Below the pieces are notes generated by a model. It was not told where the DNA came from. It worked only from the letters and a program-made list of their open reading frames with translations, and ran no database searches. From a virus: DNA of 60,877 nucleotides. Position numbers and translations under genes: made by a program. Shown piece by piece: positions 12,192 to 56,556 of this stretch. The DNA is taken from IMG/VR virus record IMGVR_UViG_3300035698_015781, positions 1-60,877 of that record, one strand, 5' to 3'. The stretch's first letter is position 1. Each line of letters begins with the position of its first letter.

Positions 12192-12281
12192 ATCTTGTTC
12201 AATAATTTTTCATGTATTCTACTTGTAAATCAATTCATAGGATTTGTTTTACGTTCTTCAGCTACAGCACAACAATCATAT

Positions 12282-12383
12282 TCACCCTCTCAATAAACAT
12301 TTAGCTATCGTCGAATGTAAGAAATAAGGCATGTAGAGATCAGCTAAGTACAAGGTTGTCATAAAACAATACAAATAAAACAT
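12282..12383 (-). CDS. Possible hydrophobic micropeptide
   Basis: An AAGGAG site lies directly before an ATG that opens a 33-residue hydrophobic frame (MFYLYCFMTTLYLADLYMPY) ending at UGA. Reading that UGA as Trp would add eleven residues up to TAA. The strong ribosome site argues for translation, but nothing else does. The rest of 12192-12280 holds no convincing gene: a frame reading TNPMN and IHEKLL there lacks a start codon. Confidence 0.3.
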   Translation of the reverse strand: MFYLYCFMTTLYLADLYMPYFLHSTIAKCLLRG

Positions 12384-12385
12384 AT

Positions 12386-12685: not shown

Positions 12686-12698
12686 ACTACCCCCTTAC

Positions 12699-13022: not shown

Positions 13023-13037
13023 TTTTGTTTCTCTTTT

Positions 13038-13316
13038 TTATTTATCTTCATTTCCTTTATTTCATAATGATGTACGGAGTGTAATGATTTTTCGAGCCGG
13101 GTATTTTTTCCCATCCTTCCAAGAAAGATTAAAATCTGGATCTCTGATAATATCTGGTCGGTCAGTATTTGCTACGAATTTCATACCACGAGCACAAATA
13201 GCTATAAAACCAGTAGGTTCACCGTCTGTAGAACTTCTCTGATAACATGATCCAGTTGTCTTCACTAATTGTAAAGCTAATACTTTAGCATCTTCGAATT
13301 CTCTTTGAATGTTCAT
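13038..13316 (-). CDS. Small hypothetical protein with a UGA near its end
   Basis: MNIQREFEDAKVLALQLVKT opens a protein that reaches UGA at 13062-13064 after 84 residues. Eight more codons lead to TAA at 13038. Its one internal Trp (LSWKDG) is UGG. In this block UGA probably acts as the stop, so the real product may be 84 residues. One of the four conserved promoters lies just upstream. A cysteine pair and GFIAICARGMKFV suggest a compact fold. The role is unknown. Confidence 0.55.
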
Positions 13317-13338
13317 TTGCTCCTCCTTTATTGATTAG

Positions 13339-13367
13339 AATATAAACGGACCCCAGAAAAAGTAAAC
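13339..13367 (-). promoter_or_regulatory. Sigma70-type promoter, copy 1 of 4
   Basis: On the minus strand GTTTAC (13362-13367) lies 17 bases before TATATT (13339-13344). The surrounding sequence (AAAATTTTCTAAAATAAT upstream) is shared with the other three copies. It drives the gene ending at 13316. GTTTAC is also the -35 box of T4 early promoters. Confidence 0.65.
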
Positions 13368-13390
13368 GATTATTTTAGAAAATTTTCGTT

Positions 13391-14380: not shown

Positions 14381-14381
14381 T

Positions 14382-14609
14382 TTACTTCTCCCTTTTATTT
14401 TCTCCTGTTTTTTCTAGTATCTCCTGTACTTCTTCTGCTATATCTATGTCAACTTGTGTGGGTGTGTCACCATGGGCTTTTTTGATTTCTGGCATTTTGC
14501 TTAATACTTTAAGAAAATTTATTTGCATCCCAGTTAAATTTTCAAGATTGGTCATGCGCTTAAACAGATCCGGGTCTTTCCTATCTCTTGTTTTTATTTT
14601 GTGAGACAT
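14382..14609 (-). CDS. Hypothetical 75-residue protein
   Basis: A charged helical protein, MSHKIKTRDRKDPDLFKRM to EKTGENKREK, ends two bases before the beta-helix gene starts, so the two are probably one operon. It has no Trp. No domain is recognised. Confidence 0.5.
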   Translation of the reverse strand: MSHKIKTRDRKDPDLFKRMTNLENLTGMQINFLKVLSKMPEIKKAHGDTPTQVDIDIAEEVQEILEKTGENKREK

Positions 14610-14630
14610 TTTTCTCCTTTTGTTTTTTAC

Positions 14631-14918
14631 CTATAAGTTCAGTAATTTCTTAGCTGCTCTACTTTGTCCACTAAATTGCGACCATATTCGTTTCCTCATA
14701 CCTTTATCTACTAGACGACTCGCAGATTTAATAGCTACACGGAGTGCTTCTTTTTGACCGATCACTTTTACATCTTTGTCATGGACACTTTGTGTTACAG
14801 CACCGATTAGTTCTCCATCGCCTATACTAACTGTTACAATAGTTTTCCTAATTTTTTGACCACTAACTACTGATGGTTCTAGCCAACTTTTAAAATTAAT
14901 CTTTGTTTCTTGTAACAT
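14631..14918 (-). CDS. Hypothetical 95-residue protein
   Basis: The sequence MLQETKINFKSWLEPSVVSG is followed by a beta part (IVTVSIGDGELIGAVTQSV) and a basic C-terminal helix (SASRLVDKGMRKRIWSQFSG). Trp codons are UGG and the stop is TAG. A basic C-terminus could touch nucleic acid, but this is a guess. Confidence 0.5.
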   Translation of the reverse strand: MLQETKINFKSWLEPSVVSGQKIRKTIVTVSIGDGELIGAVTQSVHDKDVKVIGQKEALRVAIKSASRLVDKGMRKRIWSQFSGQSRAAKKLLNL

Positions 14919-14935
14919 AATACTCTCCTTTTTAT

Positions 14936-15292
14936 TTACTTTATCAGTTCTACTATTTCCAAAAAATAATTATAAACTTCTTGGAGGCCAGCACTATGAC
15001 CATACATCCATGCTATCTTAAAACAAGCTTCTGCTTTTAGATTATCTTCGACACGGAATTCTTTAAATATATCCTCTTTGAATTCTTCTCCTAATTCACG
15101 GATAGCCTTATCGTATTCACTTCTTCTATTTTTACGGAGGCTCATACCATCAACTTTAAATTCTTTGCGTTTAAGTTTTAGTTGTGTCTCTGTTCCAACT
15201 TCTTCTTTCATCTTTTCTTCTATGAACTTGCTAACAAAATCATATGGTAGAAGTTTTACATTTGTTTCCGAGTAATACTTAAAATCTTTCAT
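14936..15292 (-). CDS. Hypothetical helical protein driven by promoter copy 2
   Basis: This 118-residue protein has LPYDFVSKFIEEKMKEEVGT and a C-terminal segment (ACFKIAWMYGHSAGLQEVYNYF) of a kind seen in other phage proteins of unknown role. Its one Trp is UGG. It starts at ATG right after one of the four repeated promoters, so it is the first gene of a short transcript with the two genes below it. Confidence 0.6.
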   Translation of the reverse strand: MKDFKYYSETNVKLLPYDFVSKFIEEKMKEEVGTETQLKLKRKEFKVDGMSLRKNRRSEYDKAIRELGEEFKEDIFKEFRVEDNLKAEACFKIAWMYGHSAGLQEVYNYFLEIVELIK

Positions 15293-15316
15293 TTTATCTC
15301 TCCTTTATTTAATTAG

Positions 15317-15345
15317 ACTATAACTATATTTTAAAATAAGTAAAC
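15317..15345 (-). promoter_or_regulatory. Sigma70-type promoter, copy 2 of 4
   Basis: GTTTAC (15340-15345), a 17-base spacer and TATAGT (15317-15322) on the minus strand. The flanking sequence is nearly identical to copy 3. It overlaps the end of the upstream gene and faces the gene starting at 15292. Confidence 0.65.
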
Positions 15346-15347
15346 AA

Positions 15348-15593
15348 TTATTTTAAAAAATTTTCTTTTTTATTTTCATTATTCTTATTTGCTAATTGAA
15401 AGAATTTATTTAGAAATATTGGAAACTCAGCTGCACTACATCGATAATGATTTAGTAATTCTAGAAATTCTTCTGGTTCTAATTTACTGTCATTTGCATC
15501 CATCAATACTTCCATTATTGCTTCTTCTCGTTCTTTGTCAGTAAGAGTGTCATCAATAAAAATCAATCTACCACCTATGTTAACTTCTCTCAT
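15348..15593 (-). CDS. Hypothetical 81-residue protein
   Basis: MREVNIGGRLIFIDDTLTDK opens a helical, acidic protein whose TAA lies within the AT-rich upstream arm of promoter copy 2. It has no Trp. The arrangement shows how tightly this block is packed. Function unknown. Confidence 0.5.
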   Translation of the reverse strand: MREVNIGGRLIFIDDTLTDKEREEAIMEVLMDANDSKLEPEEFLELLNHYRCSAAEFPIFLNKFFQLANKNNENKKENFLK

Positions 15594-15609
15594 AAATATT
15601 CCTTATTTT

Positions 15610-15816
15610 CTATTCTACGATTAATATTCTAAAACCATTAATATTGTCATCAAATGATATTTCTGGTTTTACAACTAATTTTTTCGGGCGGAATTCCTTA
15701 CAATACAGGCAGCCTGTGTTGGAAGTTTCTGGAGACAGAGATCTATTACACCATCTATATGTCTCGGCACCATCACGATGTACACAATTAGAACAATACA
15801 AATCTTCCATTATCAT
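15610..15816 (-). CDS. Small Cys-rich protein, probable zinc binder
   Basis: In 68 residues there are CSNC near the start, WCNRS and CLYC, spaced like a small zinc-binding fold of the kind found in anti-host or regulatory phage proteins. Trp is UGG and the stop is TAG. The start region ATGATAATG overlaps the end of the upstream basic gene. Confidence 0.55.
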   Translation of the reverse strand: MIMEDLYCSNCVHRDGAETYRWCNRSLSPETSNTGCLYCKEFRPKKLVVKPEISFDDNINGFRILIVE

Positions 15817-15971
15817 CTATTCTTTTTTCTAGAGGATCTAGCAACTTTATTTCTCTTATTTCGTTTGATTCTTTCATTTTTGATAAATTTTGATCTTCTA
15901 TATCTAGTACTTCCTTCGCCCCAATTTACAAATGAGAATCTCGGTAAAACAATTTGTGGACTATAATTTAT
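15810..15971 (-). CDS. Basic 53-residue protein without an ATG, GTG or TTG start
   Basis: A frame beginning at ATA (or the ATC before it) directly after an AGGAG site reads NYSPQIVLPRFSFVNWG and then a stretch very rich in Lys and Arg (SKFIKNERIKRNKRNKVARS). No standard start codon lies in frame, so initiation at AUA or AUC is proposed. It ends in tandem UGA-UAA overlapping the next start. The strong basic tail suggests nucleic acid or ribosome binding. Confidence 0.4.
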
Positions 15972-15985
15972 GATTTACTCCTATT

Positions 15986-16210
15986 TTATTTTTTGTTGTC
16001 CCTCTCTGTTACTACTTCAATATATTCGTCAAGTAATTTTTGACTATATTCATGAATCGCTCCTACTGTAATATATTCTGTTTCATTATCTTTAAATTTA
16101 AATGTTGCATCAACAGTAACCAAAACACCCTTTTTGAATTTTTTATGAAATTTCGGTGGATTATGTTCATCTCTTACTTTAATTGTATATTTTACTTTAA
16201 CTTCTTTCAT
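15986..16210 (-). CDS. Hypothetical 74-residue beta-rich protein
   Basis: MKEVKVKYTIKVRDEHNPPK continues as alternating strands (VLVTVDATFKFKDNETEYITV) and a short helix. It overlaps the upstream gene by 14 bases, so translation is coupled. It lacks Trp. Unknown role. Confidence 0.5.
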   Translation of the reverse strand: MKEVKVKYTIKVRDEHNPPKFHKKFKKGVLVTVDATFKFKDNETEYITVGAIHEYSQKLLDEYIEVVTERDNKK

Positions 16211-16391
16211 TTTTATCCTCTAATTGTTTTTTATTTATAGTTCTATTAGAAGTAGAATCATCACCAATAAACTTTACTTTCCAATATTGAGTAAAATAAT
16301 AATCGTGTATTTTTTCAATCAATTCCGCTTCACCTTCAGGCTTATTCATAGATATTGGATCCGTATAAATTGTGATTATCTTATTTTCCAT
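16197..16391 (-). CDS. Hypothetical 64-residue protein
   Basis: MENKIITIYTDPISMNKPEG, then a helix and strand with UGG Trp in TQYWKVKFIG. It overlaps both neighbours by 14-16 bases, typical of a coupled small-gene run. No family is recognised. Confidence 0.5.
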   Translation of the reverse strand: MENKIITIYTDPISMNKPEGEAELIEKIHDYYFTQYWKVKFIGDDSTSNRTINKKQLEDKNERS

Positions 16392-16588
16392 TTAATGTTA
16401 CCACAATATTCATATTCGTTACCTTCAACCCAAATCATATATTTGTTACATCTTCCTTTTTGAGAATTATATTCACTACAATGATTACATTGCTTTTCGT
16501 TATGGTTTTTTTGTCTAACTAAATTAACAGCATTTTTGAGTTTCTTATCAAAATCTTTACTTTGAGCTAACTTCTTTCCAAAAAACAT
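16376..16588 (-). CDS. Small zinc-finger-like protein
   Basis: The 70-residue protein has CNHCSEYNSQKGRC and a later Cys (YEYCGN), giving four cysteines for one metal site. Trp codons are UGG. It probably binds metal and serves a regulatory role. That is an inference from spacing only. Confidence 0.5.
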   Translation of the reverse strand: MFFGKKLAQSKDFDKKLKNAVNLVRQKNHNEKQCNHCSEYNSQKGRCNKYMIWVEGNEYEYCGNIKWKIR

Positions 16589-16626
16589 TTTTTCTCCTTT
16601 TTATTATTAACTATGTAATTGTATCT

Positions 16627-17118
16627 TTACTGATTTAAGATAGAGTCTATAATATTTTGTAAACTTTCGCTAATATCATCCTTTTTGGAATCTAGTGGTA
16701 TATTTATTTTATCTAAAAGATTACAAAATCCCTTCTTAACTTCTTCTGGCGATTCAACAACATAGTTCCACAATTGAACTATTTGATATTTTAATAGTTC
16801 TTCCTCAGTATCAAATAAAAGAGCCAGGCCTTTTTCATAAATACTACCCAGTTTGATAAATTTTAGATCCAATGTTTCGATCAGATGGGATTCAAAATAA
16901 AACATACATCCTTTTGTATCTCTAATTCCAAAAGTACCTGCATATTCATGGAATCTTATTATTCCTTTGAAATCCAAGACTCCCTTGGTATCCTCGTCTT
17001 CATAGAACCAACCTGTCGTATGGATAATATCACCCTCATATAACTCAGTATTGTTGGAATCATTTCTGTATATAGGGTCTTTCGTATGTAAAAATACATT
17101 GTTTGGTTTATTATTCAT
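16627..17118 (-). CDS. YopX-like protein
   Basis: The 163-residue protein contains NNTELYEGDIIHTTGWF followed by a beta-rich region (GIIRFHEYAGTFGIRDTKG), the layout of YopX-family proteins, which are common in phages and have no agreed function. A C-terminal helical segment with IPLDSKKDD follows. All Trp codons are UGG and the stop is TAA, in line with the rest of this block. Confidence 0.5.
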   Translation of the reverse strand: MNNKPNNVFLHTKDPIYRNDSNNTELYEGDIIHTTGWFYEDEDTKGVLDFKGIIRFHEYAGTFGIRDTKGCMFYFESHLIETLDLKFIKLGSIYEKGLALLFDTEEELLKYQIVQLWNYVVESPEEVKKGFCNLLDKINIPLDSKKDDISESLQNIIDSILNQ

Positions 17119-17137
17119 TATCTCATCTCCTAAATGT

Positions 17138-17332
17138 TTATTCTTTGTTTAATATTTCATTAAATATATCTAAAGCTTCTTCTAAATAAAGTCCTTCGTA
17201 TCTGATTTTAGGTGAACGTGCTCGATAAATATGTTCATAAAGCAACCAACCATCTTCATCGTCATGAACTAACCAAATATTACCAGAACTTAATCGAACA
17301 TTATTATTTTGCATGAACTTTTGAATTTTCAT
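17138..17332 (-). CDS. Hypothetical 64-residue protein behind promoter copy 3
   Basis: MKIQKFMQNNNVRLSSGNIW continues with VHDDEDGWLLYEHIYRA and a closing helix (LYLEEALDIFNEIL). Both Trp codons are UGG. It is the first gene after a repeated promoter. The fold looks like a small sheet plus helix. Function unknown. Confidence 0.5.
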   Translation of the reverse strand: MKIQKFMQNNNVRLSSGNIWLVHDDEDGWLLYEHIYRARSPKIRYEGLYLEEALDIFNEILNKE

Positions 17333-17356
17333 TTTATTTCTCCTTTATCTAATTAG

Positions 17357-17385
17357 ATTATAACCATATTTTAAAATAAGTAAAC
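17357..17385 (-). promoter_or_regulatory. Sigma70-type promoter, copy 3 of 4 (best match)
   Basis: GTTTAC (17380-17385), a 17-base spacer and a perfect TATAAT (17357-17362) on the minus strand, ahead of the gene starting at 17332. It is the clearest of the four copies. Confidence 0.75.
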
Positions 17386-17387
17386 AA

Positions 17388-17765
17388 TTATTTTAAAAAT
17401 TTTCTTTTTCATTGGATCTTCTTTCTTATTTTCAATAATTTAACAATTTGACAGGCATAGTAATTTGTATTCCAACTGTAATAACTACTAGATGTATCTA
17501 ATTTAATTAAATAGGTTCCAACATAATCTCTTTCATCATCATCGACTATAATTGTTAAACAATAACCCTTTTTACCGTAATGTCTACTATTTACATATCT
17601 GTTTCCAGCTGATTTATATTCAACAACATTAGTCTTTTCATCAAAGTTACAATCTATATTGAGATCCTGTAACATTTTGTGTATGGATTTAACCGACGGC
17701 ATTCTTATTTTATCCGAGAAACTAGCAGAAGCTTTCAATTTTAATTTTTCTAAAGTTTTATTCAT
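17388..17765 (-). CDS. Hypothetical protein with a UGA eight codons before its TAA
   Basis: The frame MNKTLEKLKLKASASFSDKI runs 118 residues to UGA (17409-17411) and seven sense codons further to TAA. Its internal Trp (YYSWNT) is UGG. The region GYCLTIIVDDDERDYVGTYL with KHYG-like loops suggests a small enzyme-like fold, but I recognise no family. If UGA is a stop here, the extra tail (WKRKFLK) is not made. The end falls in the promoter upstream arm. Confidence 0.5.
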
Positions 17766-18192
17766 TGTCTTCTCCTTTTACACCATTAGATAAAGTTAAA
17801 TCTGTTTTGACCCCAAAGTCTATACCGACTATTTTTTTTGGATATATAGTATCTATATTGATGAATCCAAAGACCCTATACATTATTTCATGAAATAATG
17901 GAGATAAATATATATCAGTTATTACTTCCTCACCTATATAATTTGGCTTGATAGAATTTAAGAAATATTTACATTGTTCTTTTATTGATTCTATATTTTT
18001 ATATTCTTTAATCATGTCTAATTTCACTCTAGAATCATACATTGGTAATGTACTAAAGCCACATTTCAGAAAGACTTCGAGGGTGTCATCCGGATAAATA
18101 TATATAGATATCTGTGGTATATCGAATACCTTGTCTAGAGTTCCGACATCAAAAATAGCTGGTATCAGTAATTTTCTTTTCGTTTTGGTCAT
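17758..18192 (-). CDS. Hypothetical 144-residue protein
   Basis: A mixed alpha/beta protein, MTKTKRKLLIPAIFDVGTLD to VKGEDNE, without Trp. It overlaps the next gene by eight bases, and its own ATG overlaps the UGA of the upstream gene as ATGA. That overlap is the usual sign of a real stop codon coupled to a restart. Confidence 0.55.
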   Translation of the reverse strand: MTKTKRKLLIPAIFDVGTLDKVFDIPQISIYIYPDDTLEVFLKCGFSTLPMYDSRVKLDMIKEYKNIESIKEQCKYFLNSIKPNYIGEEVITDIYLSPLFHEIMYRVFGFINIDTIYPKKIVGIDFGVKTDLTLSNGVKGEDNE

Positions 18193-18413
18193 TGTCTTCT
18201 CCCTTTATTAGTTGAATCATAACACTTCCCAATAAATAGTTTTGATATAGGACAAATTGTTGAGATTGTTTGTCCTTCTTCTCTGCATTCAATTGAATCA
18301 TCATCTGACAATTCAAAATCAACCTGGGCCACTCTTGATTTTTCACCACAATCATCAATCCATAAATCTTTACCGCCGGCGAGTGCATTCTTAACATCTT
18401 GTAAATTTTTCAT
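18189..18413 (-). CDS. Hypothetical protein ending in an ATGA overlap
   Basis: MKNLQDVKNALAGGKDLWID leads to a Cys-containing middle and stops at UGA, which overlaps the next ATG. The internal Trp is UGG. Reading the UGA as Trp would add 18 residues (to TAG at 18135-18137) that overlap the next gene in another frame and look like noise. I take UGA as the stop here. It is the first gene behind promoter copy 4. Confidence 0.55.
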   Translation of the reverse strand: MKNLQDVKNALAGGKDLWIDDCGEKSRVAQVDFELSDDDSIECREEGQTISTICPISKLFIGKCYDSTNKGRRQ

Positions 18414-18489: not shown

Positions 18490-20448
18490 CTATTTTGCCA
18501 TAGTAGTTAAAACCTCATACTTGAATTGATTATTCTTATCAAAATGAGAGGTGGATATCTTTATTCTATAATTGATATTAAAATTCGATTTTTCCGCAAG
18601 GTCTGATGGCATATTTATTAATTTATTCTCATATGTCGATAACTCTCTAATAAATGTATCATTTCAATCTTCTATAGATTTATATTCGATATTATTACTA
18701 TAAATTTCTTTATCGAAATATGGTATGCTCGTAAAAGTTAAATCACATTCTTTACTCTCTCCATAATCTTCTAATTTACAATTATATAATTTAATCGTAT
18801 TTTTATTAATTCCTAATTTAATAAATTCTTTCTTTAACTTACATAATTCATTATAAGTTTCTATATTAGGTTCAACACCAATATAAATTCCTTTAGGATA
18901 TAAAGATTTAAAAGCTAACAATCTTCCACCAAAGCCGGCACAAGGATCTATAGTTGTAGGGTCTTTTTTATTTTTTAATACAAAATTATATATCGCGGCT
19001 GCTAATGCGGGTTTAAAAAAAGATATTGTTGTTCTTCTGGCAGATAATCCCATTACTAATTGGTGCCAACTAAAGTCGAATACTTCATCAGAATTATTTA
19101 TACCAATTCTATACTCTATAACTTTTCTCATTATACTATCATTTTTTCAAACTTCAACCGGTGATATATTTTTTTTATAACTGGATTTCCAATAAGATTT
19201 AAAATTTGATTTAAGATAATTTATACCCACTAATGAGCAACTACCATTAAACATAGTATTATTTATTCGTATATTAGATAGATCATAATTTTGTATTTTA
19301 TTAACTATATCTTTAAACTCTTCTTTCTGCGGATATTCAGGAAATTCTGGTTGAAATGTTCTAATAAATTTTAATAATAGGTTTACATATTTTCTTAGTT
19401 TATCTTTCCCTTTACTATCAATATACTTTTTAAAATATTCTTTATTAATTATTCTCTGTCTGTATTCTATACTGTAATCTGGTATATACGAATTATCCAT
19501 TAATGTGTTGATATTTAGATCGTCGGGTATTTCGGAAGTATGTATTCTTATTAATTCATAATTACTTTTCTTGACTATTTCGGTCTTCTGTTTATCATTC
19601 ACCAAACTACTGATTTGTGATACCGTTAGATCTTCTATTCTACTTGGGTGTCAGAAGTCTCCATCAACCTCTATTAATTTATTGTCTAGTTCCATATCAA
19701 ATTCTTTACCATCAAGTATGAATTTATGCTCCGCACTTAATGCCTCTGCAACAGCTTTCTCTATGGCTGAGGTTTTACCATTATATTTCTTTCTGAAATC
19801 ACGATCAACGAACTCAGTCCAATACCCATATTTATCTATCTTTGTTTCAGCTATCAGTTCACTGTTGTTGTAATTTGCGTCACCATATTTTTCAAGCTTT
19901 GTTTGTCTAGATTTATCATGAATAGATGATAGCTCTAAAGGATGTTTCACACCATAGCGGGCCAAATTAGTCTCTTTTATTTTATCGATGTTATTATAAT
20001 TCGGGTCGCCATATCGGTCTATCTTAGTTTGCTTCATCTGATCCATATTGTTATAATTTGGATCACCGTACTTATCAGCCTTTGCTCTTTTTATTTTGTC
20101 TTTAGTGATTTTCAGAAGATAAACATTCTCTACACCATACTTCTCCATGATGGCTTCCTTAGTATTTTCTTTTATTTTCAGCTTAGTTGCCTCAGTGTGT
20201 TTTTTCCTTGGTGCATGATTTCTAGTGTAGTCCGAGAACCAATCGCCTAGTTTGAATGGTTTAAATGATAATTTAGTCCCACAACCACACTTACAAGTCG
20301 GCCACACGCCGTCGTAATATGTTTTCAGGATGTATTGTTCTGTAGTTAGCCCGTGTTCTCTTAATATATGGTTCTTCTTGATTTTGTAAGTTTTGAACTC
20401 AGTATTACACACTCTACAGGTTCTACTTTCTTTCTTAGATATCCTCAT
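18490..20448 (-). CDS. Homing endonuclease-like protein fused to a DNA methyltransferase domain
   Basis: One 652-residue frame with UGA read as Trp (including DFWHPS, VEVWKND and EDWND). Residues 1-75 carry CRVCN and CKCGCG zinc-like motifs. About 110-210 are KYG-DPNYNN repeats. About 225-270 hold KEFDMELDNKLIEVDGDFWHP, like the EDxHD nuclease core. The C-terminal half has FKPALAAAIYNFV, DPCAGFGGRLLAF (SAM-binding), YIGVEPNIETYNEL and TFTSIPYFDKE (in the place of the usual SPPY catalytic motif). Joining cutting and methylating domains in one phage gene is unusual. The N-terminal nuclease looks shorter than in its relatives and may be inactive. It starts 14 bases before the upstream endonuclease gene ends. 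Confidence 0.7.
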
Positions 20449-22120
20449 TTCTCCCTCTTTCTACTATATATTCATACTTTAGACTTCCACAGTCCCATAT
20501 TCTATCATAGCCGGCCTCTAACATTATTTCTATTTCAGTCTTGTCGTCGCTATAGTTTGGTAAGTGTTTTAAAGCCGACTTTCTGAAATTGTAACGGTGT
20601 ATTCTTTCAATATGATCTCTTACATACCAGTAGTTAGGCGACCCATTCGACGTCTTGTAGAACCCGAGACCATCATATAGCCCGCCTTGGCTCCAACGTC
20701 TATCTGCGTATCCTATTATTTTTATTGGTTTATAATTCTCTACGAAATAGTTAAATAATATCTTTGCGTTGATAGTCATATTCTCTGTTGATGCAAACCG
20801 GACAAGCTCATAATGACCAGCACTATCTTTAATAACTGATCTCAACTTATTCAACACCATAACTGATACTAACTTATTATTATGCATCAGACCAATTTTT
20901 ATCTTACCCTTAGCGCTACCTCTGATGTGATACCTATTCGAGAACCCCTCCTCATCTTTCTTACTAATTATGTTGATAGTGTAGTCGTCGTAGATTTTTT
21001 CTCTGTCCGGAACCAATATTCGCTTTAATAGTGCCTTCACTAGGTCGCTCTTGTCTCTCCATTCATCATCAAATATATGGATTAATCGTATACCCATTTT
21101 ATCGCATTTTTCCGTCTTGTTCCAATGGTAGTCCTTCGTCTTATGGCCGAAGAATTCTGAATGCCAGAGCAATCCATTATACTCTATTGCCAATTTCTTG
21201 GACGGGACGTATATATCCAGTTCTTTACCATTAAGTAGTCTCCTATTATTCTGTTCTAGCCCGATATTGAGTATATCTCTAATATAACTGGATATCTCCT
21301 CTTCTGCTTTGCTAGAATACTTATGTACCATATTTTTGTTGATCTCTATGGCATGCGCCGATCTTTTTCTGCTGGCTCGGTCCGACACAGTCCTGCCATA
21401 CTTTTTGCGATATTCTGGCATAGTCATACCGTGCGTTTTGATATGAGTATTAGATATCTTCATAAATAATTTACCGCATACTCCACATTTTATTCGATTA
21501 TCTGGGTCCGCTAGTACACCCGCCCTATCCTTCTCTGTCTTTTGATTTTCGTAGTAAGATTCCAGCAATCTTGTCTTCTCGTTGGTCGGTATATCATATT
21601 GTTCTGTAAGTTCAAATATAGTCATGTTATGTTTTTTGGACAGATGAACGGTTATACACCCAGACACATTATTGACATCTGTAGTAGTTCAGCCGCATAT
21701 CGGGCACTTAAATCGTTCTCTAGTATCTTCCACGGCATCTATGGTCTTAAATAAGTTGTTACCGAGTTCTAAACCATGCTTTCCTCTACAATGTCTTGTT
21801 AACGCGCCAGAAGTGTTCAGACAGTCCGTACTAGTCCAACCGCAAAGTCTACACTCAACTCGCCTTGTGTTATCGTTCTGTTTCTTAGCGAACGTTTTTC
21901 CGACTAGGTCCAAACTTCTGCATCTTCTAGAACAAAATATATTACCGATCCTCTTGACTGGACTACCACAGGTTTTGCATTTATTTTCGTAATCCTCTAA
22001 ATATTGCTCATAGTCTTCCGTTATACCATGTGTCATAAAGTGTCTTGTGTAAGATCCGTTTATATTGCTTGACGAACCTAATATCTTCCCACAAATTTTA
22101 CATCTTTTATAAGTTTTCAT
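20435..22120 (-). CDS. EDxHD (Vsr-like) homing endonuclease behind the capsid gene
   Basis: This 561-residue frame has one UGA, at CPICG-UGA-TTTDV. An internal repeat of the same protein reads CRLCGWTSTD with UGG, so UGA equals Trp here by direct self-comparison. The N-terminus is a series of such C-x-x-C ... H zinc-finger repeats (about residues 1-230). The nuclease core is at about 310-385, with KELDIYVPSKKLAIEYNGLLWHSE and RLIHIFDDEWRDK. The C-terminus has GYADRRWSQGGLY, NYWYVRD and DRIWDCGSLKYE. It lies directly downstream of the major capsid gene and its terminator. Homing genes are often found beside such conserved targets. Confidence 0.85.
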
Positions 22121-33716: not shown

Positions 33717-35450
33717 TTATAACACGTATTTTAAATTACCACAGTCTCAGACTCTGTCATATCCATTCATCTGCATGTTTTGTCATTCAGTCAAGTTAGG
33801 ATCGAAAGTATTCAATTTACCTTTCAATTTATGTTTTTGAAATTTAATTCTTGATCCGATGAAATTATACCCGTCCGTATACCAGTAACTCGGTGGTGTC
33901 TTTATTACATCAATACCAGTTGCATGATAGTAGTTGTTTGTATTACTGAATCTACGATCTAAAAATGTTACGATGTTACCTGGGTAGATCGACTTGAAAT
34001 GACTTAATAGTTTACTGAGCCCACCAACTACAGTAGTATATAGTTCGGTCGAATACCTATACATCTCTCACTCGGTTGTTCCACCCCCGAATCGATCTTC
34101 TCCAAACGTCATAAGGCTGACCAGTTTGTCATTAGTAAATAACCCTAATCTGACTTTACTATTTATATATCCCGATATATGTGTTCTATCCATGAATTCT
34201 CTAGCTGTATTCGAGTTTACCTCTTTCACGGTGGTATTCCTAGCATATATTCTGGTCTGTATTAGATTGAGCTTACTCGTCAGTATAGACTTGACTATGT
34301 TCCTATTGTAGATTCACTCTGTATCTCATATGTGTATCAATTTAATGCCATTCTCTTCACATATATTGGTCTTATTGATATGATAATTTCTATCTTTTCC
34401 GTTCGACTCAGAGTGTCAATATATACCATCGTATTCTACAGCTAAATTATAGCTAGGTATGTATATATCCAGTTCTAGTCCACTTAGCACTGATCGGTCC
34501 TGGTGAATTATAGTGGTACCACTTGGCAATATAGACTTGATGAACCCGAATAGTTCAACCTCGCCAATTGACGATGAATAGTCTATGGGATAACACTTCA
34601 AACATCTAGGTATTAGTCCGTCTTCTAATGTTGCTTTAAATATGTTACCACATTCTAGACATTCAAATCTATATAATTTACGGTCACCATGTTTGTCTCT
34701 GGTACCGGTATACTCGTCTAGATTAAAAAGTGGTTTAACTCTACCCTTGAGCCTGTCTGAATTGAACAATGTTTCGTAGAATTTTTTGAGTCTAGTAATT
34801 CTAGTTTTAATCTTACAGTCGTTACTCTGGAACACATACTTTGTACCGTATTTTTCTAAGACCGTTTTTTGCCTTTTATTATTTACTATTTTATCTGTTT
34901 GAGCACATTTTTGTGAACAATATTTTACTCTGGAATTTGGTGATTCTTTAAATATATTTCCACAATTTAAACATATTCTATCAACCTTTGAGTGATTTCT
35001 AGTATATTCATAATGACAATCTAAAGAACAATATTTTGAAAATCCTCGTTTTAACCCGTAAAATTTACTATCCTTTCCGCAGTTTAAACAATTTTTATTT
35101 TTATCGTCTATATATTTTAGGTAATAGTCTTTAATTGTTATTTTATGGCCTTGTTTAATGTGATGAGATAAACTTTTATATGATTTTCCACAAATTAAAC
35201 ATTTTTCTCTCTTTGTACGTTTTTTATATTTTCTATGATTACTTATGCATTTGTTCGAACAATATTTTCCATATCCATTTAAACCATTAAAAGCGGTATC
35301 GCCTCCACAATTTAAACATTTTCCTTCAGTATCTCTTTTTAAATATTTATCATAGTAGTCTTTAGTTTTTAACTTATGAATTCTTAGAATATGATTAGAT
35401 AAACCTTTTAGAGATTCGAAATTTCTATTACAAACTTTACAAATTATCAT
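33717..35450 (-). CDS. EDxHD (Vsr-like) homing endonuclease behind the protease gene
   Basis: The 577-residue frame opens with zinc-finger repeats (CKVCNRNFESLKGLSNHI, CLNCG, CLICGKSYKSLSHH and more, to about residue 190). A spacer with an EKYGTKYVF motif follows. The nuclease core at about 335-400 has LELDIYIPSYNLAVEYDGIY-W-HSE and LIHIWDTEW, both Trp by UGA. The C-terminus has TFLDRRFSNT, SYWYTDG, DPNLTEWQNMQMNGYDRVWD and LKYVL. Compared with the relative at 263-2032, the same Trp positions are UGA or UGG in each. It starts nine bases after the protease stop, so the gene was inserted with little disturbance. Confidence 0.85.
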
Positions 35451-35458: not shown

Positions 35459-36064
35459 CTACTTTAATTCTGATAGAACTTCAATTATTAGTTTATTTAG
35501 TCTTGAATTTAATATTGATGAATTATTTCGTACTGCGCCTTCATTCACTACGTTCATTCAGGCCCCAGGTGTACTAGGAGTTGAAACAAAATCTCAACAT
35601 ATTATTTCGTAGTCGTCTTGCACTTCGTCTATACCGTTGACTTCATTAACTGATCCTAATCCTCTACTCGAAATCCCAACTCTGATACCAGACTCTAGCA
35701 GTCTCCTTAGAATTTCCCCAGATGGGGTCGGTAATATTTCTATAGTTCCAATAAGATTATTACCTTGTCATTCTATTGCCAATATATTATGTGATACATT
35801 CTTCAAATTCACGATAGAATCAGACGGGTGGTCTAGTTCGCCTGTTGCTCTATGCTCATTGATATAGTTTTCGTTATATATTAGTGCCTCTCGTTCCAAG
35901 ATGTGCTTCGAGTATGTTCTGTTATTCTGGTTTAAGACACCGGCTTTTTGCAGAATACCTTTAACTATCAAACGACCATTATTCGTCTTTATAGACTCTC
36001 TAACTAGTTGTGGTGTTATTTGAAATGGTATAACATCCTGTAGTAATTGTCTATTTCCTAACAT
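35459..36064 (-). CDS. Prohead maturation protease, gp21-like (S80 type)
   Basis: The 201-residue frame includes TGELDHPSDS (catalytic His region) and VGISSRGLGSV (Ser region), the paired motifs of T4 gp21 and related prohead proteases. UGA is read as Trp at AIEWQGN, ICWDFV and GAWMNV. The N-terminus has LVKGILQKAGVLNQNNRTYS, also typical. gp21 cuts scaffold, capsid and internal proteins at (L/I)-x-E sites inside the head, which makes the tagged genes around it possible substrates. Confidence 0.85.
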
Positions 36065-49264: not shown

Positions 49265-49639
49265 TTAATAATCAAATTCTTCTAATGATTCTTCCATTGC
49301 ATTAACAACTTGTTTCATTTCTGTTCCATTTCTATCTTGATTATCCATTGCCATTTCAGCTACTTCACGAGTAGAATACTCTGTACCTAAATACATTTCA
49401 ATTATAGCTTCTACTATATTCTTATCATAATTAGATAAATCTGATTCTCATTCCTTCATTTTAGCCATATGTTCGTTTTCTGAATATTTATCTTGGTTCT
49501 TCATAAATTCTCCAGATTTTGCTTTTATTTTACTCAATAATTGACTGGTCTGTGTACCATAATTATCCATAAAATCATCATAACTTCCTTCATTTAAACT
49601 ACATTTAAACTCATTTAATAGTTTTCTTAAATTTTCCAT
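49265..49639 (-). CDS. Tagged small protein (RKLLNEFK family)
   Basis: MENLRKLLNEFKCSLNEGSY leads to a helical body (MDNYGTQTSQLLSKIKAKSG, later EMAMDNQDRNGTEMKQVV). UGA Trp at KEWESD. 124 residues, TAA stop. The LNEG after the tag is a plausible cut site by analogy with T4 (L/I)-x-E. Confidence 0.6.
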
Positions 49640-49714: not shown

Positions 49715-50449
49715 CTACTGATTCTCTAGCTTTACCTTCTCTATAGATCGCAGAGATCTACTCGATGAATCCTCCGTTCTCTTGTTTTGAATTTTTAGAG
49801 TCCCTCTAATTAGACTACCAAACTCTAACAACATTTTACCGGTTTGCTCATCTACCATGAAACATCTGATCCCATCATCCAAATATATCTTACCTTTTTT
49901 GCCATTTCTTATACTCTGCTTATGTTCTTCAGACAATTTTTTACCTAGTCCGGCTTTACTGAGATTAAGCTTATGTTCTTCGGATAATTTTTTACCTAAT
50001 TTAGCCTTTCTCATCTTTAGCTTTGTCTCTTCAGAGTGCTTCCTACCATAGAACTGGTTCTTTTTACCTAATTTACATTCAGACATCTTTCGTATAGTTT
50101 CTTCGTTGTGTCTTTTACCATAGAACGGATGATTCTTCCCAGACATCACCCTCGACATCAGCTGTTTACTCTCCGTTGAATGTATATAACCACAAGACCC
50201 ACCCATTTGCTTATTATAGGTATTCAAACTTTTACAAAATTCCTCGGTTACTAATTCCGCTTCTTTGTCTGAAGCCTCTCTACGAGTAGAATAGTCAAAT
50301 AATATAATCTTTTCGATGGATTGTTTTAGATAAATACTGGATCCCATGTATCCATCATTTAGGTTGTTTGTACTATGTATCCCTCGGTAAACTTTACCAT
50401 CTATCAGATTTTCTATATTATAAACAATATTGTGTCCTTTTTCTCTCAT
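49715..50449 (-). CDS. GIY-YIG homing endonuclease, shortened
   Basis: The 244-residue protein opens with NLIDGKVYRGIHSTNNLNDG and GYMGSS, the GIY-YIG core as in the relative at 50857-51567. About ten residues that lie before ILFDY in the relative (KEYGRKNFKR) are missing here, so the nuclease may be inactive. The middle has four NUMOD3-type repeats (GKRHNEETIRKMSE, GRKHSEETKLKMRK, GKKLSEEHK). It has no Trp. Confidence 0.7.
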   Translation of the reverse strand: MREKGHNIVYNIENLIDGKVYRGIHSTNNLNDGYMGSSIYLKQSIEKIILFDYSTRREASDKEAELVTEEFCKSLNTYNKQMGGSCGYIHSTESKQLMSRVMSGKNHPFYGKRHNEETIRKMSECKLGKKNQFYGRKHSEETKLKMRKAKLGKKLSEEHKLNLSKAGLGKKLSEEHKQSIRNGKKGKIYLDDGIRCFMVDEQTGKMLLEFGSLIRGTLKIQNKRTEDSSSRSLRSIEKVKLENQ

Positions 50450-50856: not shown

Positions 50857-51567
50857 TTAATCTCCCATTCTTTTATATACACCATAAAATCATTTTCCTG
50901 ATTCTATAGATTTTTCTGCAATTTCAATTTTTACCATTTTATTTATTTTTCCATTATTAATTCATCTTATATTATTATTCTTATAATACCTTTTGCGAGA
51001 TTTGCTTCTTTTTAATTTGGTTTCTTCTGAAATAATCCTACCATACATAGGATTATTTTTACCGCTACAGAATTCTTTGTTATTTTTATAAAAAAGTATT
51101 TTAGCTTTACTTATTTTTAATTTAGTTTCTTTAGAATGGTGTTGCCCATATCTTGGACTATTTTTACCTCTCTTGCCATACATAGGATTATTTTTACCTG
51201 CCCATATTCCTGGATGTTCTCTATGATATTTTTTATTACTTTCTCTAATTTTTATTTTAGCTTCCTCTGAACATTTAAACGTGTATTCGTTATCACCACC
51301 AGGCTTAAGATTATAAGTCTCCTTAGATTTACAAAATTCTTCAGTAACTAATTCTCTTTCTTTATCGCTGGCCTGTTTTCTTGTTGGATAATCAAATAAA
51401 ATAGTTCTCTTAAAATTTTTTCTTCCATATTCCTTAACTGCTTTACATAGTATTGAATTGCTACCCAAATACTTATCTTCTAAATTATTAGTACTATGTA
51501 TTCCTCGATAAATTTTTCCATTTATAAGATTTTCTGTATTATAAACTATATTGTACTTTTTATTCAT
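50857..51567 (-). CDS. GIY-YIG homing endonuclease
   Basis: A 236-residue frame with UGA Trp at NIRWINNGK and GKWFYG. NLINGKIYRGIHSTNNLEDK and KYLGSN, then ILFDYPTRKQ form the GIY-YIG domain. NUMOD3 repeats (YGKRGKNSPRYGQHHSKETK, YGRIISEETKLKRSKS) follow, then the RWINNGK end typical of such enzymes. It is inserted between a copy of the holin-like leader and the holin-like gene. Confidence 0.75.
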
Positions 51568-51668: not shown

Positions 51669-52001
51669 TTACGACATTCATAGCCCACAGGATTTGGATG
51701 GATCTATACTTTCGGCTGATGTAATATTACCATTTTCTATTATAGCTTTACCAAATTCTTCAAAATCGGCATTAAAAAATACTAAATATTTATTTGGTGC
51801 AAGTTCTATAACCCCGTCTAATTCACCGGTTTTATCGAAATAAAAACCGGCTTCCTTTTCTATATAATCCTTATTATTTAACAGAATATCAAATATAGCA
51901 TCATATACGTCCTTTCCGTCTATTTTATCATCCCATGCAAGAAATTTTTCTTCTTTTAAACCTACTTTGAACTCATTTAATAATTTTCTTAAATTCTCCA
52001 T
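51669..52001 (-). CDS. Tagged small protein (RKLLNEFK family)
   Basis: MENLRKLLNEFKVGLKEEKF leads to a beta-rich body (GVIELAPNKYLVFFNADFEE). One UGA Trp lies three codons from TAA. 110 residues. The identical first 12 residues to the gene at 49265 and quite different bodies show the tag is a reused piece. Confidence 0.6.
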
Positions 52002-52035: not shown

Positions 52036-52458
52036 CTAATTTTTCCATACGTTTCTTCCCCTTTCCATTCTTTTACTTATAAATTTATATTGTGGATTAT
52101 TTTTTTGTGCAATTTTCATCATCTCTTCCATCCACGGTAATATTGCATAATAACTTTCACCGATATAAAAAATACTAGTTTTCTCTCATCTCTGTATTGC
52201 TAATACTTTTTGTGGAATTTTTTCAAAAGACCAATCTCTAATAGGTGGTGGAATTAAACCTTTATCGCTCAAATAATAAAATAATTCAGTATGTGTCTGA
52301 TAACCCGCTTCTTCTACAAATAGATTACCTTTTTTGTTTATTATTCCACGGATATCTTCACCCATTCTTTTAATAGACGGTGGATCTTTATAAATATTAA
52401 CACCTTCACATTTTCCGATATACTCTTCTGTAATCAAGTCCATGAATTTTATATGCAT
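52036..52458 (-). CDS. Hypothetical protein with FMDLITEEY opening
   Basis: The 140-residue frame begins MHIKFMDLITEEYIGKCEGV, the third style of acidic N-terminal segment, and has UGA Trp at AIQRWEKT. A body with SIKRMGEDIRGIINKKGN and a C-terminal helix (PWMEEMMKIAQKNNP) follows. TAG stop. No family is recognised. Confidence 0.5.
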
Positions 52459-52468: not shown

Positions 52469-53227
52469 CTATTCTAAACTTCTTAATTTATCATATGCTT
52501 CTTTTTTTAAATCAAATAATTTTTCTATATATCCAGTTCTTCTAAGTACTTTGAATGCTAAATTCTCAACACTAAATTCACCACCTTTAGATAACCCAGA
52601 TTGTCTCATTCTTTTTAATTTTTCTTTTATTTTATCAGTAGCTATCATTGTTTTCTCATATTCTTTATCTTTCATTAATTCTTCTAAATAACTTAGTGTT
52701 CCGATATATGATTCTGCTTTAGATTTAATATCATCTTTATCTATTTTAATCTCACGTACAGGTGGAATAGAGATCCACTTATCTCTAGCCAATGAATATA
52801 ATCCTGACGCAACGTGAGGATTGCCAACATCTTCGACATATATTTCTACAGGTAAATCTTTAATTTCGATATCATGTTGATCATTTCATCTACCTCTTTT
52901 AGCATCAAACATCTTCTGAACTAATCCTTCGTCCTCACTCACAGTTTTAAAAGGAATCCTAATATGCATATCAATATCTGAATATTCTGATCAATTATAA
53001 TTAGCCCCACTACCAGTTAATACAATGTCTTTTATTTTTGGTGGGCTCTCTAATTCTAAAGCGTCTAAAAAATCCTTAGCTATTAATATTAATCTCTTTC
53101 TAACTTCTGGTTTTATTTTATCATCATCTCATATACCAGGGTATAAGGTATCTTGTATTTCAAAAGACTTCAGTACTTTATCATCTATATCGGATACTTC
53201 GTTAATTATTATTTTCAGGGTCTTCAT
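52469..53227 (-). CDS. Nucleotidyltransferase-fold protein
   Basis: The 252-residue frame reads DIVLTGSGANYNWSEYSDID, a GS...DxD motif of the Pol-beta-like nucleotidyltransferase fold, with UGA as Trp in YNWSEY. The N-terminus has DTLYPGIWDDDKIKPEVRKR and the C-terminal half is helical (KIKEKLKRMRQSG). The substrate is unknown. The upstream in-frame ATG at about 53281 lies in the IscB end, so I use the ATG at 53227. It has no good ribosome site, perhaps because of the insertion. Confidence 0.7.
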
Positions 53228-53252
53228 AAAATTTTTATGTTGTGGAAAATAT

Positions 53253-53268
53253 AACTCTTTAGAGTTGT
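53253..53268. repeat. 16-base palindromic repeat, right copy (end of IscB element)
   Basis: AACTCTTTAGAGTTGT here and at 54784-54799 are identical and each can fold into a hairpin. This copy overlaps the IscB stop codon. The pair brackets the IscB and omega-RNA unit. Confidence 0.65.
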
Positions 53269-54512
53269 ATAGGAACAACATTTCCTCCTATTGTTATTTT
53301 TTCTATTAATGTTGTAGTTCTTGCTGCTATTCGTTTACAGTTCTTTTTTATACTAACTGATCCAGATTTGTTATCTGTGAGTTTGTTTCAATGTATATCT
53401 ACAAGAATAGCACCTCCAGTAGACATTTTTCCCTTAACAAATCCAACTCCTCTTGCTGTCTTAATTAAATCAAATTTTCTTATTCCAAACAGTTTGTCCG
53501 TCGGTATAGTTTTTTCACTCCTTCTACCCATAGTTTGTCTATAATCTCCATTACAAACGTGTCGTTTATAGTAAATAGTATTGTCAGAATCAACTACTTC
53601 GCCTTCTTCACAACAGATAGCTATTGCATCATTAGCATGAGTCTTAGGTAGCTTCAATATTTGCTCCCTCTTAAATTTTGTTTCATAACCATAAGTTTCT
53701 TCAAAGTCACCAAAAAGTTTTCTAAGTTGAGAACTGATAATGTTAATATGTGTAGCGTGCTGAGTTGTGGATCTTTTACCTTTGATTTCAAATTCGCCCG
53801 CGTGTAGTTTTTCATGACATAATTTACACAGAGTAATTAAGTTAGATGGAGTATGTGTTCCACCTTTGTTCTGGAAGATTATGTGATGGACATGTAATTT
53901 AGTGTTTTTAGCTTTGCAGTGTTGACATTTATATCCGTCTCTATCCAATATATAGGCCTTTGTGTTGTAAAATCCTTTTTTATTGCCTTCTTGATAATCT
54001 TTACCTCTTACTTCTGGATTAATCATCTTATGGATGTCAAATTTAGCTGTTTCGACATGTCATTCCGATACTGGTAAAATTGATTTGATAAAGTTTTTCT
54101 CTCTTAAGTGTGAATCAATCTTAGATTTAATGCTTGGAGCTATTCTACCTTCTCTTTTTGAAGCTGCTCTGTTATTTCAACGAGGTTCCCGATAGCGTAA
54201 TTTTCTGCTTCTCCTATTGCGTCTATATCCTCTTCTCTGAGTCATTTTTCTTTTTACGTCGTTTCTGACATGAATTTCACTTTGGTAAATTACTTTACCA
54301 TTACTAATAGCAGCGCAACCTATTTCTTTTGATCCAGGGTCCATTCCTGCTATAACTTCTTGGACATTTTCTTCACAATCTCACAGCAACTTAATTGTGA
54401 AAGGTGTTCTTTTGATGACTTTAGCCTTTCCATCTCTTAATAGATGTTTAGCTTTGGCTGGTTTACACGGCATCAGTGAATTACCATTTTTATTTATTAC
54501 GTATACATACAT
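53259..54512 (-). CDS. iscB: IscB RNA-guided nuclease
   Basis: A 417-residue frame from ATG (GGAGG upstream) to TAA with four UGA Trp codons. It has the whole IscB layout: PLMP-type start (SLMPCKPAKAKHLLRDGKAK, about residues 12-32), RuvC I with D58 (IAGMDPGSKEIG), the Arg-rich bridge (RRGYRRNRRSRKLRYREPR, about 93-111), RuvC II with E154 (WHVETAKFD), HNH (LHVHHIIFQ ... SNLITLCKLCHEKLH, about 206-237), RuvC III (PKTHANDAIAIC, H292 and D295) and a C-terminal target-binding part (FGIRKFDLIKTARGVGFVKG). All catalytic residues are visible. IscB is the ancestor-like relative of Cas9, usually mobile. A phage copy that itself uses UGA as Trp is notable. Confidence 0.9.
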
Positions 54513-54735
54513 GGCATTATGCCTCCCTGTATACTAGAATAGTGCGTATCTATAGCATTGGAGTTACTACAGAATTCGTCCTCCCCTCGATCGGTTAAAT
54601 AAGCTTCGGAATGTGGTTGACTGTTCCTTAACACTAAGAACTGTTTACAGTGCCACGAGAGTTGCATGGGATTGGGGCGGCGTCCTATGGTCTCTACATC
54701 AAACTTAACGTTTACTAACATTTCTTATCTCCTGT
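54513..54735 (-). ncRNA. Omega RNA (HEARO) upstream of IscB
   Basis: The roughly 210 bases just 5' of iscB are GC-richer than the surroundings and have the pieces of a folded RNA: GCGCC-rich stems (GACGCCGCCCC, CTGTAAACAG, GATCGAGGGGAGGACG) ending directly at the IscB start (GGCATAATGCC hairpin-like). IscB omega RNAs lie at this position with a 5' guide. A 75-residue frame across the region has no protein character. The 5' border and the guide cannot be set from sequence alone. Confidence 0.75.
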
Positions 54736-54753
54736 TAATGATCTGGTAAACAT

Positions 54754-54783
54754 GTATCTTTAATTTTGATGAATTAAAGATAC
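54754..54783. repeat. Perfect 12 base-pair hairpin before the omega RNA
   Basis: GTATCTTTAATT, six-base loop, AATTAAAGATAC. It lies between the upstream gene and the omega RNA and touches the left palindromic repeat. It could end upstream transcription or be part of the element end. No T run follows on the minus strand. Confidence 0.5.
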
Positions 54784-54799
54784 AACTCTTTAGAGTTGT
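54784..54799. repeat. 16-base palindromic repeat, left copy (end of IscB element)
   Basis: Identical to 53253-53268. It follows the stop codon of the upstream gene by a few bases, so the element of about 1.55 kb starts here. Hairpins at both ends recall IS200/IS605-type elements, the relatives of IscB. Confidence 0.6.
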
Positions 54800-54805
54800 G
54801 TTTGT

Positions 54806-55429
54806 TTACTTTCAGACTTTTCATTCTGTATTTCCTTTTTGAAGCTTGTTTATATACTCTCTTATTCCTATTATTTTTTTATTTAATTCTGCTATTATAT
54901 TTTTTGTTTCTTCTTTATCTACCTTTCAAGTATCTATAACCCCTTCCGAGTTTTGTACTAAATTTAAATCATCACCAACGGAATCAGCTAACTCTAAGTA
55001 CATTGATAATTCACCTTTTAAAAGAGCTATTGTTTCTTTTATGTTTTTTACTTTAGCTATTTTTAGATAATTATCTTTTACTCTAAGTTTATGATCTTCA
55101 GCTATGAAACAGTCAAAACATTTTTTGTTTATCCACCAAGAACTAACGTCTAACTGGTGCTTCATCTGCTTTTCGCAAATTGGGCAGAATCTAGGTAACT
55201 TAACATCCTTCAGTTCATCTTCTAACATTATAGAAGTTTTAGTTCTTACGATTCCATCCTTTATTAAATATTCAGTGCCTAAGTCTGTCCAAGTCTCTCC
55301 ATCCTTTTTGTTTTTGATCTCAGAATCCTTATCTTTCTGATCACCGAGATTATAACTTTTACTACCTTTACTTTTATCTAATTTATCTATTAAATCATCA
55401 ACAGATCTTGGTATCCATCCTTTCATCAA
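54806..55429 (-). CDS. Conserved phage protein with a CPxC zinc motif
   Basis: The 207-residue frame has RFCPICEKQMKHQLDVSSWW and KKCFDCFIAEDHKLRVKDNY, a zinc-binding pair typical of a conserved phage protein. UGA Trp occurs at IDTWKVD and the C-terminus (TEWKVWK). The N-terminus, MMKGWIPRSVDDLIDKLDKS, is a further marker. Its stop lies just before the IscB element. Role unknown, perhaps assembly or DNA-related. Confidence 0.65.
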
Positions 55430-55962: not shown

Positions 55963-56292
55963 TTACCATTCAACTTTCCTAGAATCTGGGAAATTTTGTT
56001 TTCCATATTTTTCATGAAATTTTCTATGACATTTTCAACAATACGTTATTGAATTTTCAACTTTTAATCTTAACTGCGGAAATCTTGTATACCCTTTGAC
56101 ATGATGAACTTGAAATCTTACTTTAAATCTTCCACATTTTTGACATCTATAACCATCTCTTGCTAATGCTTTCTTTCGTCAAACATCATAAGCTGGAGAC
56201 TTTCTAACACTATGTTTCCACTTCTTTCTAAGACAACTTTGCTTTATTTTTTTGACAACACTAAAGTCTATAAGACTCTTACTTTTATTCAT
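55963..56292 (-). CDS. HNH endonuclease
   Basis: 109 residues: AYDVWRKKALARDGYRCQKC, then RFQVHHVKGYTRFPQLRLKV, and ITYCWKCHRKFHEKYGKQNF. The zinc-supported HNH motif (CxxC ... HH ... CxxCH) is complete, and both Trp at the motif borders are UGA. It resembles free-standing phage HNH nucleases that spread as homing genes or help packaging. Confidence 0.8.
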
Positions 56293-56556
56293 CTATTTAA
56301 AATATGTTTCTATTCTTTTAATTTTCTTGTATCTACCAGGTAATCGCTTATTGTTAATTATCTTACACTCAGACACATAAAAAAAGCCACCTTGTTTATC
56401 TATTATTTCGGACGTTGTTTCGTCTATTATTTTTTCATAAAAATCAGCAAATTCATCCTCACCAGGTCAAGTCTTATGATGAATCATTCCGCTTTCCGTC
56501 ATTATTTTTCTCTCAGCCGATGTTCATTCTGTAATTAGATCTGTCAGTTTTATCAT
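56293..56556 (-). CDS. Hypothetical protein with LTDLITEW opening
   Basis: 87 residues: MIKLTDLITEWTSAERKIMT and a body with HHKTWPGEDEFADFYEKIID and GGFFYVSECKIINNKRLPGR. UGA Trp at TEW and KTW. The opening matches the FMDLITE-type segments. It ends at TAG just before the HNH gene. Confidence 0.5.

What the first reader, a model, noticed from the sequence alone, without database searches (positions are those of the whole stretch)
53253..54799. Phage-borne IscB with omega RNA, itself using UGA as Trp
The IscB has every catalytic residue visible (D58, E154, H292, D295 and the HNH set) and sits directly behind a structured GC-rich RNA. It is inserted between two conserved small phage genes near the tail fibre and terminase region. 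Its UGA Trp codons (44, 112, 151, 375) show it has been resident long enough to take up the phage code or came from a relative with the same code. It could act as an RNA-guided homing device or against rival phages.
Basis: partly seen in the sequence, partly recalled or inferred. Interest (0 to 1): 0.9.

Follow-up and report, generated by a model that had tools for sequence, protein, structure and literature searches.

The report
RNA-guided mobile nuclease in recoded phage
A large virus of bacteria that reads the stop codon UGA as tryptophan carries a complete, apparently working RNA-guided DNA-cutting mobile element (IscB with its guide RNA), rewritten in the virus's own genetic code and probably used to copy itself into sister viruses that lack it.

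Summary
Window 53259-54512 (minus) encodes a 417-aa IscB: NCBIfam guided_IscB 345 bits against a 175 cut-off, and all catalytic residues are present. Directly upstream lies an omega RNA (54575-54809). Rfam HEARO scores 72.5 bits, below its gathering score of 83, but a covariance model built from 20 relatives without the window scores 142 bits. Alignment with relatives gives the whole element as 53228-54809. Both ends keep the paired hairpins, and the 3' flank starts with ATGA, the start codon of the next gene. In 30 of 30 related elements this flank is RTGR, the inferred TAM. The 16-nt guide is AATGAAAAGTCTGAAA.

UGA=Trp is solid: coding density is 0.54 under code 11 and 0.85 under code 4, and UGA falls on conserved Trp columns of TerL and other genes. 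All four Trp codons of this IscB are UGA; no relative has one. The phage is a T4-like myovirus, probably of Bacteroidota, with seven other homing-type endonuclease genes and its own UCA-anticodon tRNA.

Most likely role: a homing, gene-drive-like element that cuts the unoccupied site. No empty allele or natural target was found and no TnpA is in the window, so spread is inferred. It is a new member of a known kind; viral HEARO/IscB was already reported.

The parts
53228..54809 (-). Whole mobile element (5' end at 54809, 3' end at 53228), 1582 bp
   Evidence: 5' border: MAFFT of 28 upstream regions, conservation starts at GTAAAC, same base as HEARO model position 1. 3' border: last base before the conserved RTGR flank, 30/30 elements.
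54810..54825 (-). Predicted 16-nt guide AATGAAAAGTCTGAAA (flank that the omega RNA carries at its 5' end; may be longer)
   Evidence: Position directly 5' of the omega RNA, variable between related elements; guide placement follows the established IscB/HEARO design (PMC9755519).
54575..54809 (-). Omega RNA (HEARO)
   Evidence: RF02033 72.5 bits, E 3.2e-14, GA 83; hold-out model R1 142.2 bits; 40 of 50 consensus pairs with changes on both sides across the alignment.
54782..54799 (-). Left-end inner hairpin ACAACTCTAAAGAGTTGT
   Evidence: same letters in L010.
53259..54512 (-). iscB gene, 417 aa, code 4 (UGA=Trp at 44, 112, 151, 375)
53284..53289 (-). AGGAGG, Shine-Dalgarno-like, inside the 3' end of iscB and just 5' of the right-end stem-loop
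   Evidence: GGAG-type motif at this place in 24 of 30 elements.
53237..53281 (-). Right-end stem-loop: outer stem ATGTTGT (53275-53281) / ACAACAT (53237-53243), inner hairpin AACTCTAAAGAGTT (53253-53266)
   Evidence: Outer stem 7 bp; covariation across 29 elements, 0 of 2000 permutations reach it; inner hairpin equals the left-end hairpin.
53224..53227 (-). ATGA: predicted TAM and start codon of the downstream gene
   Evidence: RTGR at this place in 30/30 related elements: ATGA 24, ATGG 5, GTGA 1.
52469..53227 (-). Downstream phage gene (PHROG 36119), whose start codon abuts the element
54806..55429 (-). Upstream ORF, no relatives; its TAA stop in code 4 lies inside the first bases of the element

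Best explanation
An intact IscB-omega RNA mobile element sits in a UGA=Trp T4-like phage. Read-through transcription from the upstream gene gives an RNA whose first part is the flanking 16 or so nt (guide) followed by the omega RNA scaffold. IscB, translated only where UGA is read as Trp, binds it and cuts DNA carrying the guide sequence followed by an RTGR TAM, that is, the same locus without the element (predicted ...AATGAAAAGTCTGAAA|ATGAAG...). The occupied locus has GTAA after the guide and is spared. Repair of the cut from an element-bearing copy during replication or co-infection copies the element in, so it behaves as an RNA-guided homing or gene-drive element. Original entry was probably by a transposase acting in trans on the two matching hairpin ends. 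Shown: protein, RNA, ends, TAM-like flank, recoding. Inferred: transcription, cleavage, repair copying, transposase in trans.
For: NF040563 345 bits and intact catalytic residues; IscB fold and sequence matches. Omega RNA by hold-out model. Exact borders with a variable left flank and an RTGR right flank in 30/30 elements. Left-end sequences never carry G at TAM position 3, so the occupied site lacks the inferred TAM. Right-end stem covaries. dN about 0.23 with dS saturated or nearly so against the closest relatives, dN/dS about 0.09 to 0.13 where it can be computed. UGA=Trp by coding density and conserved Trp columns. The nearest IscBs (L100, L101) also sit in a phage contig, two copies at different sites beside a homing endonuclease gene. 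Seven other homing-type endonuclease genes in the window show that such elements persist in this phage. RNA-guided copying into element-free replicons is shown for the analogous TnpB (PMC11870625).
Against: No element-free allele was found: flank genes and junction patterns gave no homologous site, so homing is untested. No Y1 transposase in the 60.9-kb record, which is itself a fragment. TAM is inferred from flanks picked partly by eye, not from an assay. Activity and transcription are not observable here.
Confidence: 0.72

Rival explanations
1. A resident insertion sequence whose IscB only prevents its own loss after excision (transposon retention); the phage is merely a carrier and spread between phages is unimportant.
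For: Both transposon-type hairpin ends are intact and match each other, as in L010; near-identical elements at different sites exist (L005 and L102, L012 and L109), so the family does transpose.
Against: No TnpA in the window; composition and Trp codons fully match the phage, which suggests long residence; the closest phage relatives L100 and L101 show no recognisable right-end structure yet keep open IscB genes, which fits homing better than transposition.
Confidence: 0.2
2. The IscB has been turned to attack competing phages or the host, with a guide against foreign DNA.
For: IscB is programmable and phages do use homing nucleases for marker exclusion (established knowledge).
Against: The guide position holds the local flank with the normal border; the only exact 19-mer match (15 nt of guide plus ATGA) among 2.9 million viral contigs lies in an unrelated coding frame at about the chance level; no defence-system association.
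Confidence: 0.05
3. A decaying or inactive copy that merely has an open frame in code 4.
For: Rfam score below gathering; no element-free relative.
Against: Full-length frame, catalytic residues kept, dN about 0.23 at saturated or near-saturated dS; hold-out RNA model 142 bits; paired ends intact.
Confidence: 0.03

Closest known systems
HEARO / IscB systems (Altae-Tran 2021, from memory; Goltsman 2022, PMC9755519), about 16% of fragments reported viral
   Same: RuvC and HNH nuclease with PLMP and TAM-interacting parts, HEARO RNA directly 5', guide from the left flank, 3' TAM, often without TnpA nearby
   Different: Here every Trp is UGA, so the protein can only be made where UGA is sense; TAM inferred as RTGR; 417 aa
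OgeuIscB and OrufIscB (solved structures; OrufIscB TAM NTAAA, relaxed NWRRN, PMC13180657)
   Same: Fold and domains; ATGA fits NWRR
   Different: About 20% identity over the fold; a G at TAM position 3 is inferred here, which separates target from the element's own GTAA end
IS200/IS605 elements with TnpB, a gene drive in plasmids (PMC11870625)
   Same: Guide records the insertion site; empty copies are cut and replaced by copies with the element
   Different: IscB rather than TnpB, TAM on the right flank, phage rather than plasmid, no transposase in the record
Phage homing endonucleases (HNH, GIY-YIG; several in this window)
   Same: Solitary nuclease gene in a T4-like phage, expected spread by cut and repair
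   Different: Target set by an RNA copied from the flank, not by protein-DNA recognition

Membership tests
IscB / HEARO (OMEGA) RNA-guided nuclease | Split RuvC with RRXRR bridge and inserted HNH, catalytic residues kept | tested here: met
   PDB hits
IscB / HEARO (OMEGA) RNA-guided nuclease | HEARO omega RNA directly upstream | tested here: met
   RF02033 72.5 bits (below GA 83); hold-out model 142.2 bits
IscB / HEARO (OMEGA) RNA-guided nuclease | N-terminal PLMP-type domain | tested here: met
   SLMPCKPAKAKHLLRDGKAKV, with LMP and the following residues conserved in 22 relatives
IscB / HEARO (OMEGA) RNA-guided nuclease | RNA-guided cleavage with 3' TAM | not testable with these tools
   TAM inferred from flanks only
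Autonomous IS200/IS605 insertion sequence | Subterminal hairpins at both ends | tested here: met
Autonomous IS200/IS605 insertion sequence | Own Y1 (HUH) transposase TnpA | tested here: not met
   PF01797 absent from the record; element contains only iscB
Homing element | Element-free allele cut at the insertion site and converted | tested here: inconclusive
   No element-free allele found
CRISPR-Cas (type II) | CRISPR array and adaptation genes | tested here: not met
   No CRISPR RNA family above its gathering score in the window and no repeat array around the element; adaptation genes were not searched for separately
Code-4 (UGA=Trp) phage | UGA at conserved Trp positions, higher coding density with code 4 | tested here: met
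   TerL columns 117, 174, 221, 288 and downstream-gene column 97 (80/80) are Trp in relatives (numbering from its ORF start at 53281); density 0.54 against 0.85

The most novel reading that the evidence does not exclude
An RNA-guided homing nuclease under genetic-code control: because all its Trp codons are UGA, IscB is made only after the phage's own UGA-reading tRNA has accumulated, which would confine cutting to the late, many-genome phase of infection when element-bearing repair templates abound. In addition, the family's right end may act as a portable ribosome-binding site (GGAGG held next to the target gene's ATG by the covarying stem-loop), making insertion in front of start codons harmless.
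Probability: 0.25. Interest if true: 0.7.

Novelty: new member of a known kind. Interest (0 to 1): 0.5.

Why it matters
It joins two fields that have been studied apart: OMEGA nucleases and phage stop-codon recoding. An RNA-guided selfish nuclease that cannot be translated in standard-code cells would be confined to recoded phages, a clean natural case for asking whether IscB works as a phage homing element. The family-wide RTGR flank and the covarying right end give exact, testable predictions of target, TAM and self-avoidance.

Tried and rejected
Empty site by neighbours: the upstream protein has no relative in viral contigs, and none of the 80 loci with the downstream gene carries the upstream neighbours. 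Exact search for the predicted empty junction: one 19-mer hit, L146, in an unrelated coding frame and about what chance gives. Wider guide pattern and degenerate gene-start pattern: no hits. Second guide-like site in the window: only chance-level matches with 2-3 mismatches. UGA=Gly rejected: relatives carry Trp, not Gly, at residues 112 and 151 and often at 44; Gly is common only at the weakly aligned residue 375. Host-encoded contamination rejected: the gene lies between phage genes in a record with TerL, portal, capsid and sheath genes. Defence role: only generic HNH matches.

Full report
What is there. The window is a 60.9-kb viral record. On the minus strand at 53259-54512 lies a 417-aa frame, open only if UGA is sense, with four UGA and no UGG. 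It is an IscB: NCBIfam NF040563 345 bits against a cut-off of 175, Pfam RRXRR and HNH, best solved-structure matches all IscB or IsrB by sequence and by fold of a moderate-confidence model (mean pLDDT 67). D58, E154, H209, H210, H233, H292 and D295 are invariant in 22 relatives.

The RNA. Rfam HEARO matches 54575-54809 over the full model at 72.5 bits, E 3e-14, but below the curated 83. Because that is sub-threshold I built a model from 20 relatives without the window; it finds this stretch and nothing else in the window, at 142 bits. The consensus structure has 50 pairs, 40 with changes on both sides. Fifteen of 16 records holding viral relatives of the protein also have HEARO hits.

Borders. 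Aligning upstream regions of 28 elements, conservation begins at GTAAAC, base 54809, and everything to the left is unrelated between elements. At the other end, the right-end structure is followed after a few A/T bases by ATGA (24), ATGG (5) or GTGA (1) in 30 of 30 elements, and in 25 of 30 that ATG or GTG opens a frame of at least 50 codons (anchors were picked by eye, a weakness). In the window this is the ATG of the downstream gene at 53227. So the element is 53228-54809 and the inferred TAM is RTGR, compatible with NWRRN reported for OrufIscB (PMC13180657). No left end carries G at the third TAM position, so an occupied site should be spared. From memory, the original HEARO description named ATGA/GTGA as the integration flank; I could not open that paper.

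Ends. The left-end hairpin ACAACTCTAAAGAGTTGT recurs at the right end, and L010 has the same pair. The right-end outer stem differs in sequence between elements but pairs: 24 of 29 have at least 5 bp, against 27% when arms are swapped, and 0 of 2000 permutations reach the observed total. A GGAG-type motif precedes the stem in 24 of 30, which suggests, as inference only, a replacement ribosome-binding site for the gene whose start the element abuts.

Guide and target. The 16 nt left of 54809 read AATGAAAAGTCTGAAA. The predicted empty site is ...GGAAATACAGAATGAAAAGTCTGAAA|ATGAAGACCCTGAAA.... The flanks form an imperfect 15-nt repeat (ATGAAAAGTCTGAAA / ATGAAGACCCTGAAA, 12/15; chance 0.0035 allowing shifts). 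This could mean that the gene originally began five codons earlier, or that recombination left a doubled start; I cannot decide. No element-free allele turned up.

The code. Coding density rises from 0.54 (code 11) to 0.85 (code 4). UGA sits on Trp columns of TerL (117, 174, 221, 288) and of the downstream gene (97, 80 of 80). IscB residues 112 and 151 are Trp in nearly all close relatives and 44 in many, always UGG there; no relative has in-frame UGA. GC3 of iscB equals that of the phage (0.227 against 0.235), and dN is about 0.23 at saturated or nearly saturated dS. The copy has thus been in a UGA=Trp setting for long. The host is probably Bacteroidota with the standard code (inference): a T9SS sorting-domain protein lies at 13391-14380, and TerL and the downstream gene are closest to Flavobacterium and Maribacter phages among cultured records. 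A UCA tRNA is encoded at 5228-5326.

Relatives. On a quick tree the nearest sequences are L100 and L101 (98% SH-aLRT), two copies at different places of one contig binned as Deferribacterales that carries phage genes and a homing endonuclease. Near-identical elements at different sites (L005 and L102; L012 and L109) show that the family moves.

Mechanism. The best-supported reading is RNA-guided homing: cut the same locus where it lacks the element, and be copied in by repair, as shown for TnpB on plasmids (PMC11870625). Transposon retention is the main rival. Cleavage, transcription and spread are untested. Phage-borne HEARO/IscB is known (PMC9755519, over 16% of fragments likely viral or prophage-derived); what is new is the fully recoded copy in a recoded phage and the explicit self/target prediction.

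Noticed in passing
window 5228-5326 minus: A tRNA with UCA anticodon that scores as tRNA-Sec (Rfam RF01852 42.4 bits, E 2e-7, GA 47), with a long variable arm; it also reads as a 7-bp acceptor ending in G73-CCA with A1-U72 and G2-C71 as in tRNA-Trp. Possibly the phage's UGA-to-Trp tRNA on an unusual scaffold.
   Followed up: partly
window 11600-18200: A block of small genes nearly free of UGA (2 UGA : 17 UGG, against 172 : 71 elsewhere, Fisher 2.6e-7), including a T9SS sorting-domain protein; perhaps genes expressed before the code switch.
   Followed up: partly
window 263-2032, 18490-20448, 20435-22120, 33717-35450, 49715-50449, 50857-51567, 55963-56292: Seven other homing-type endonuclease genes (phrog_3339-like HNH or homing, NUMOD3, GIY-YIG-type, small HNH); one (20435-22120) still has 7 UGG : 1 UGA and high GC3, suggesting recent arrival.
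   Followed up: partly
window 52469-53227, 51669-52001, 49265-49639, 56293-56556, 52036-52458: Several small proteins start with similar ~10-residue leaders ending in E (MKTLKIIINE, MENLRKLLNE, MIKLTDLITE, MHIKFMDLITE), like T4 capsid-targeting sequences cut by the prohead protease (protease gene at 35459-36064).
   Followed up: no
L143: Fragment of a close relative (TerL 77-81% identical) that also has TGA at TerL Trp positions; its TerL match is in two pieces 1.2 kb apart, perhaps an intron or insertion.
   Followed up: no
L100 / L101 (contig DHGE01000126.1): Two related IscB genes near the two ends of a 69-kb contig binned as Deferribacterales that carries phage genes; the right-end stem-loop is not recognisable in either.
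   Followed up: partly
L010: A TnpB-like gene lies just upstream of an IscB element with the same end hairpins as the window's element.
   Followed up: no
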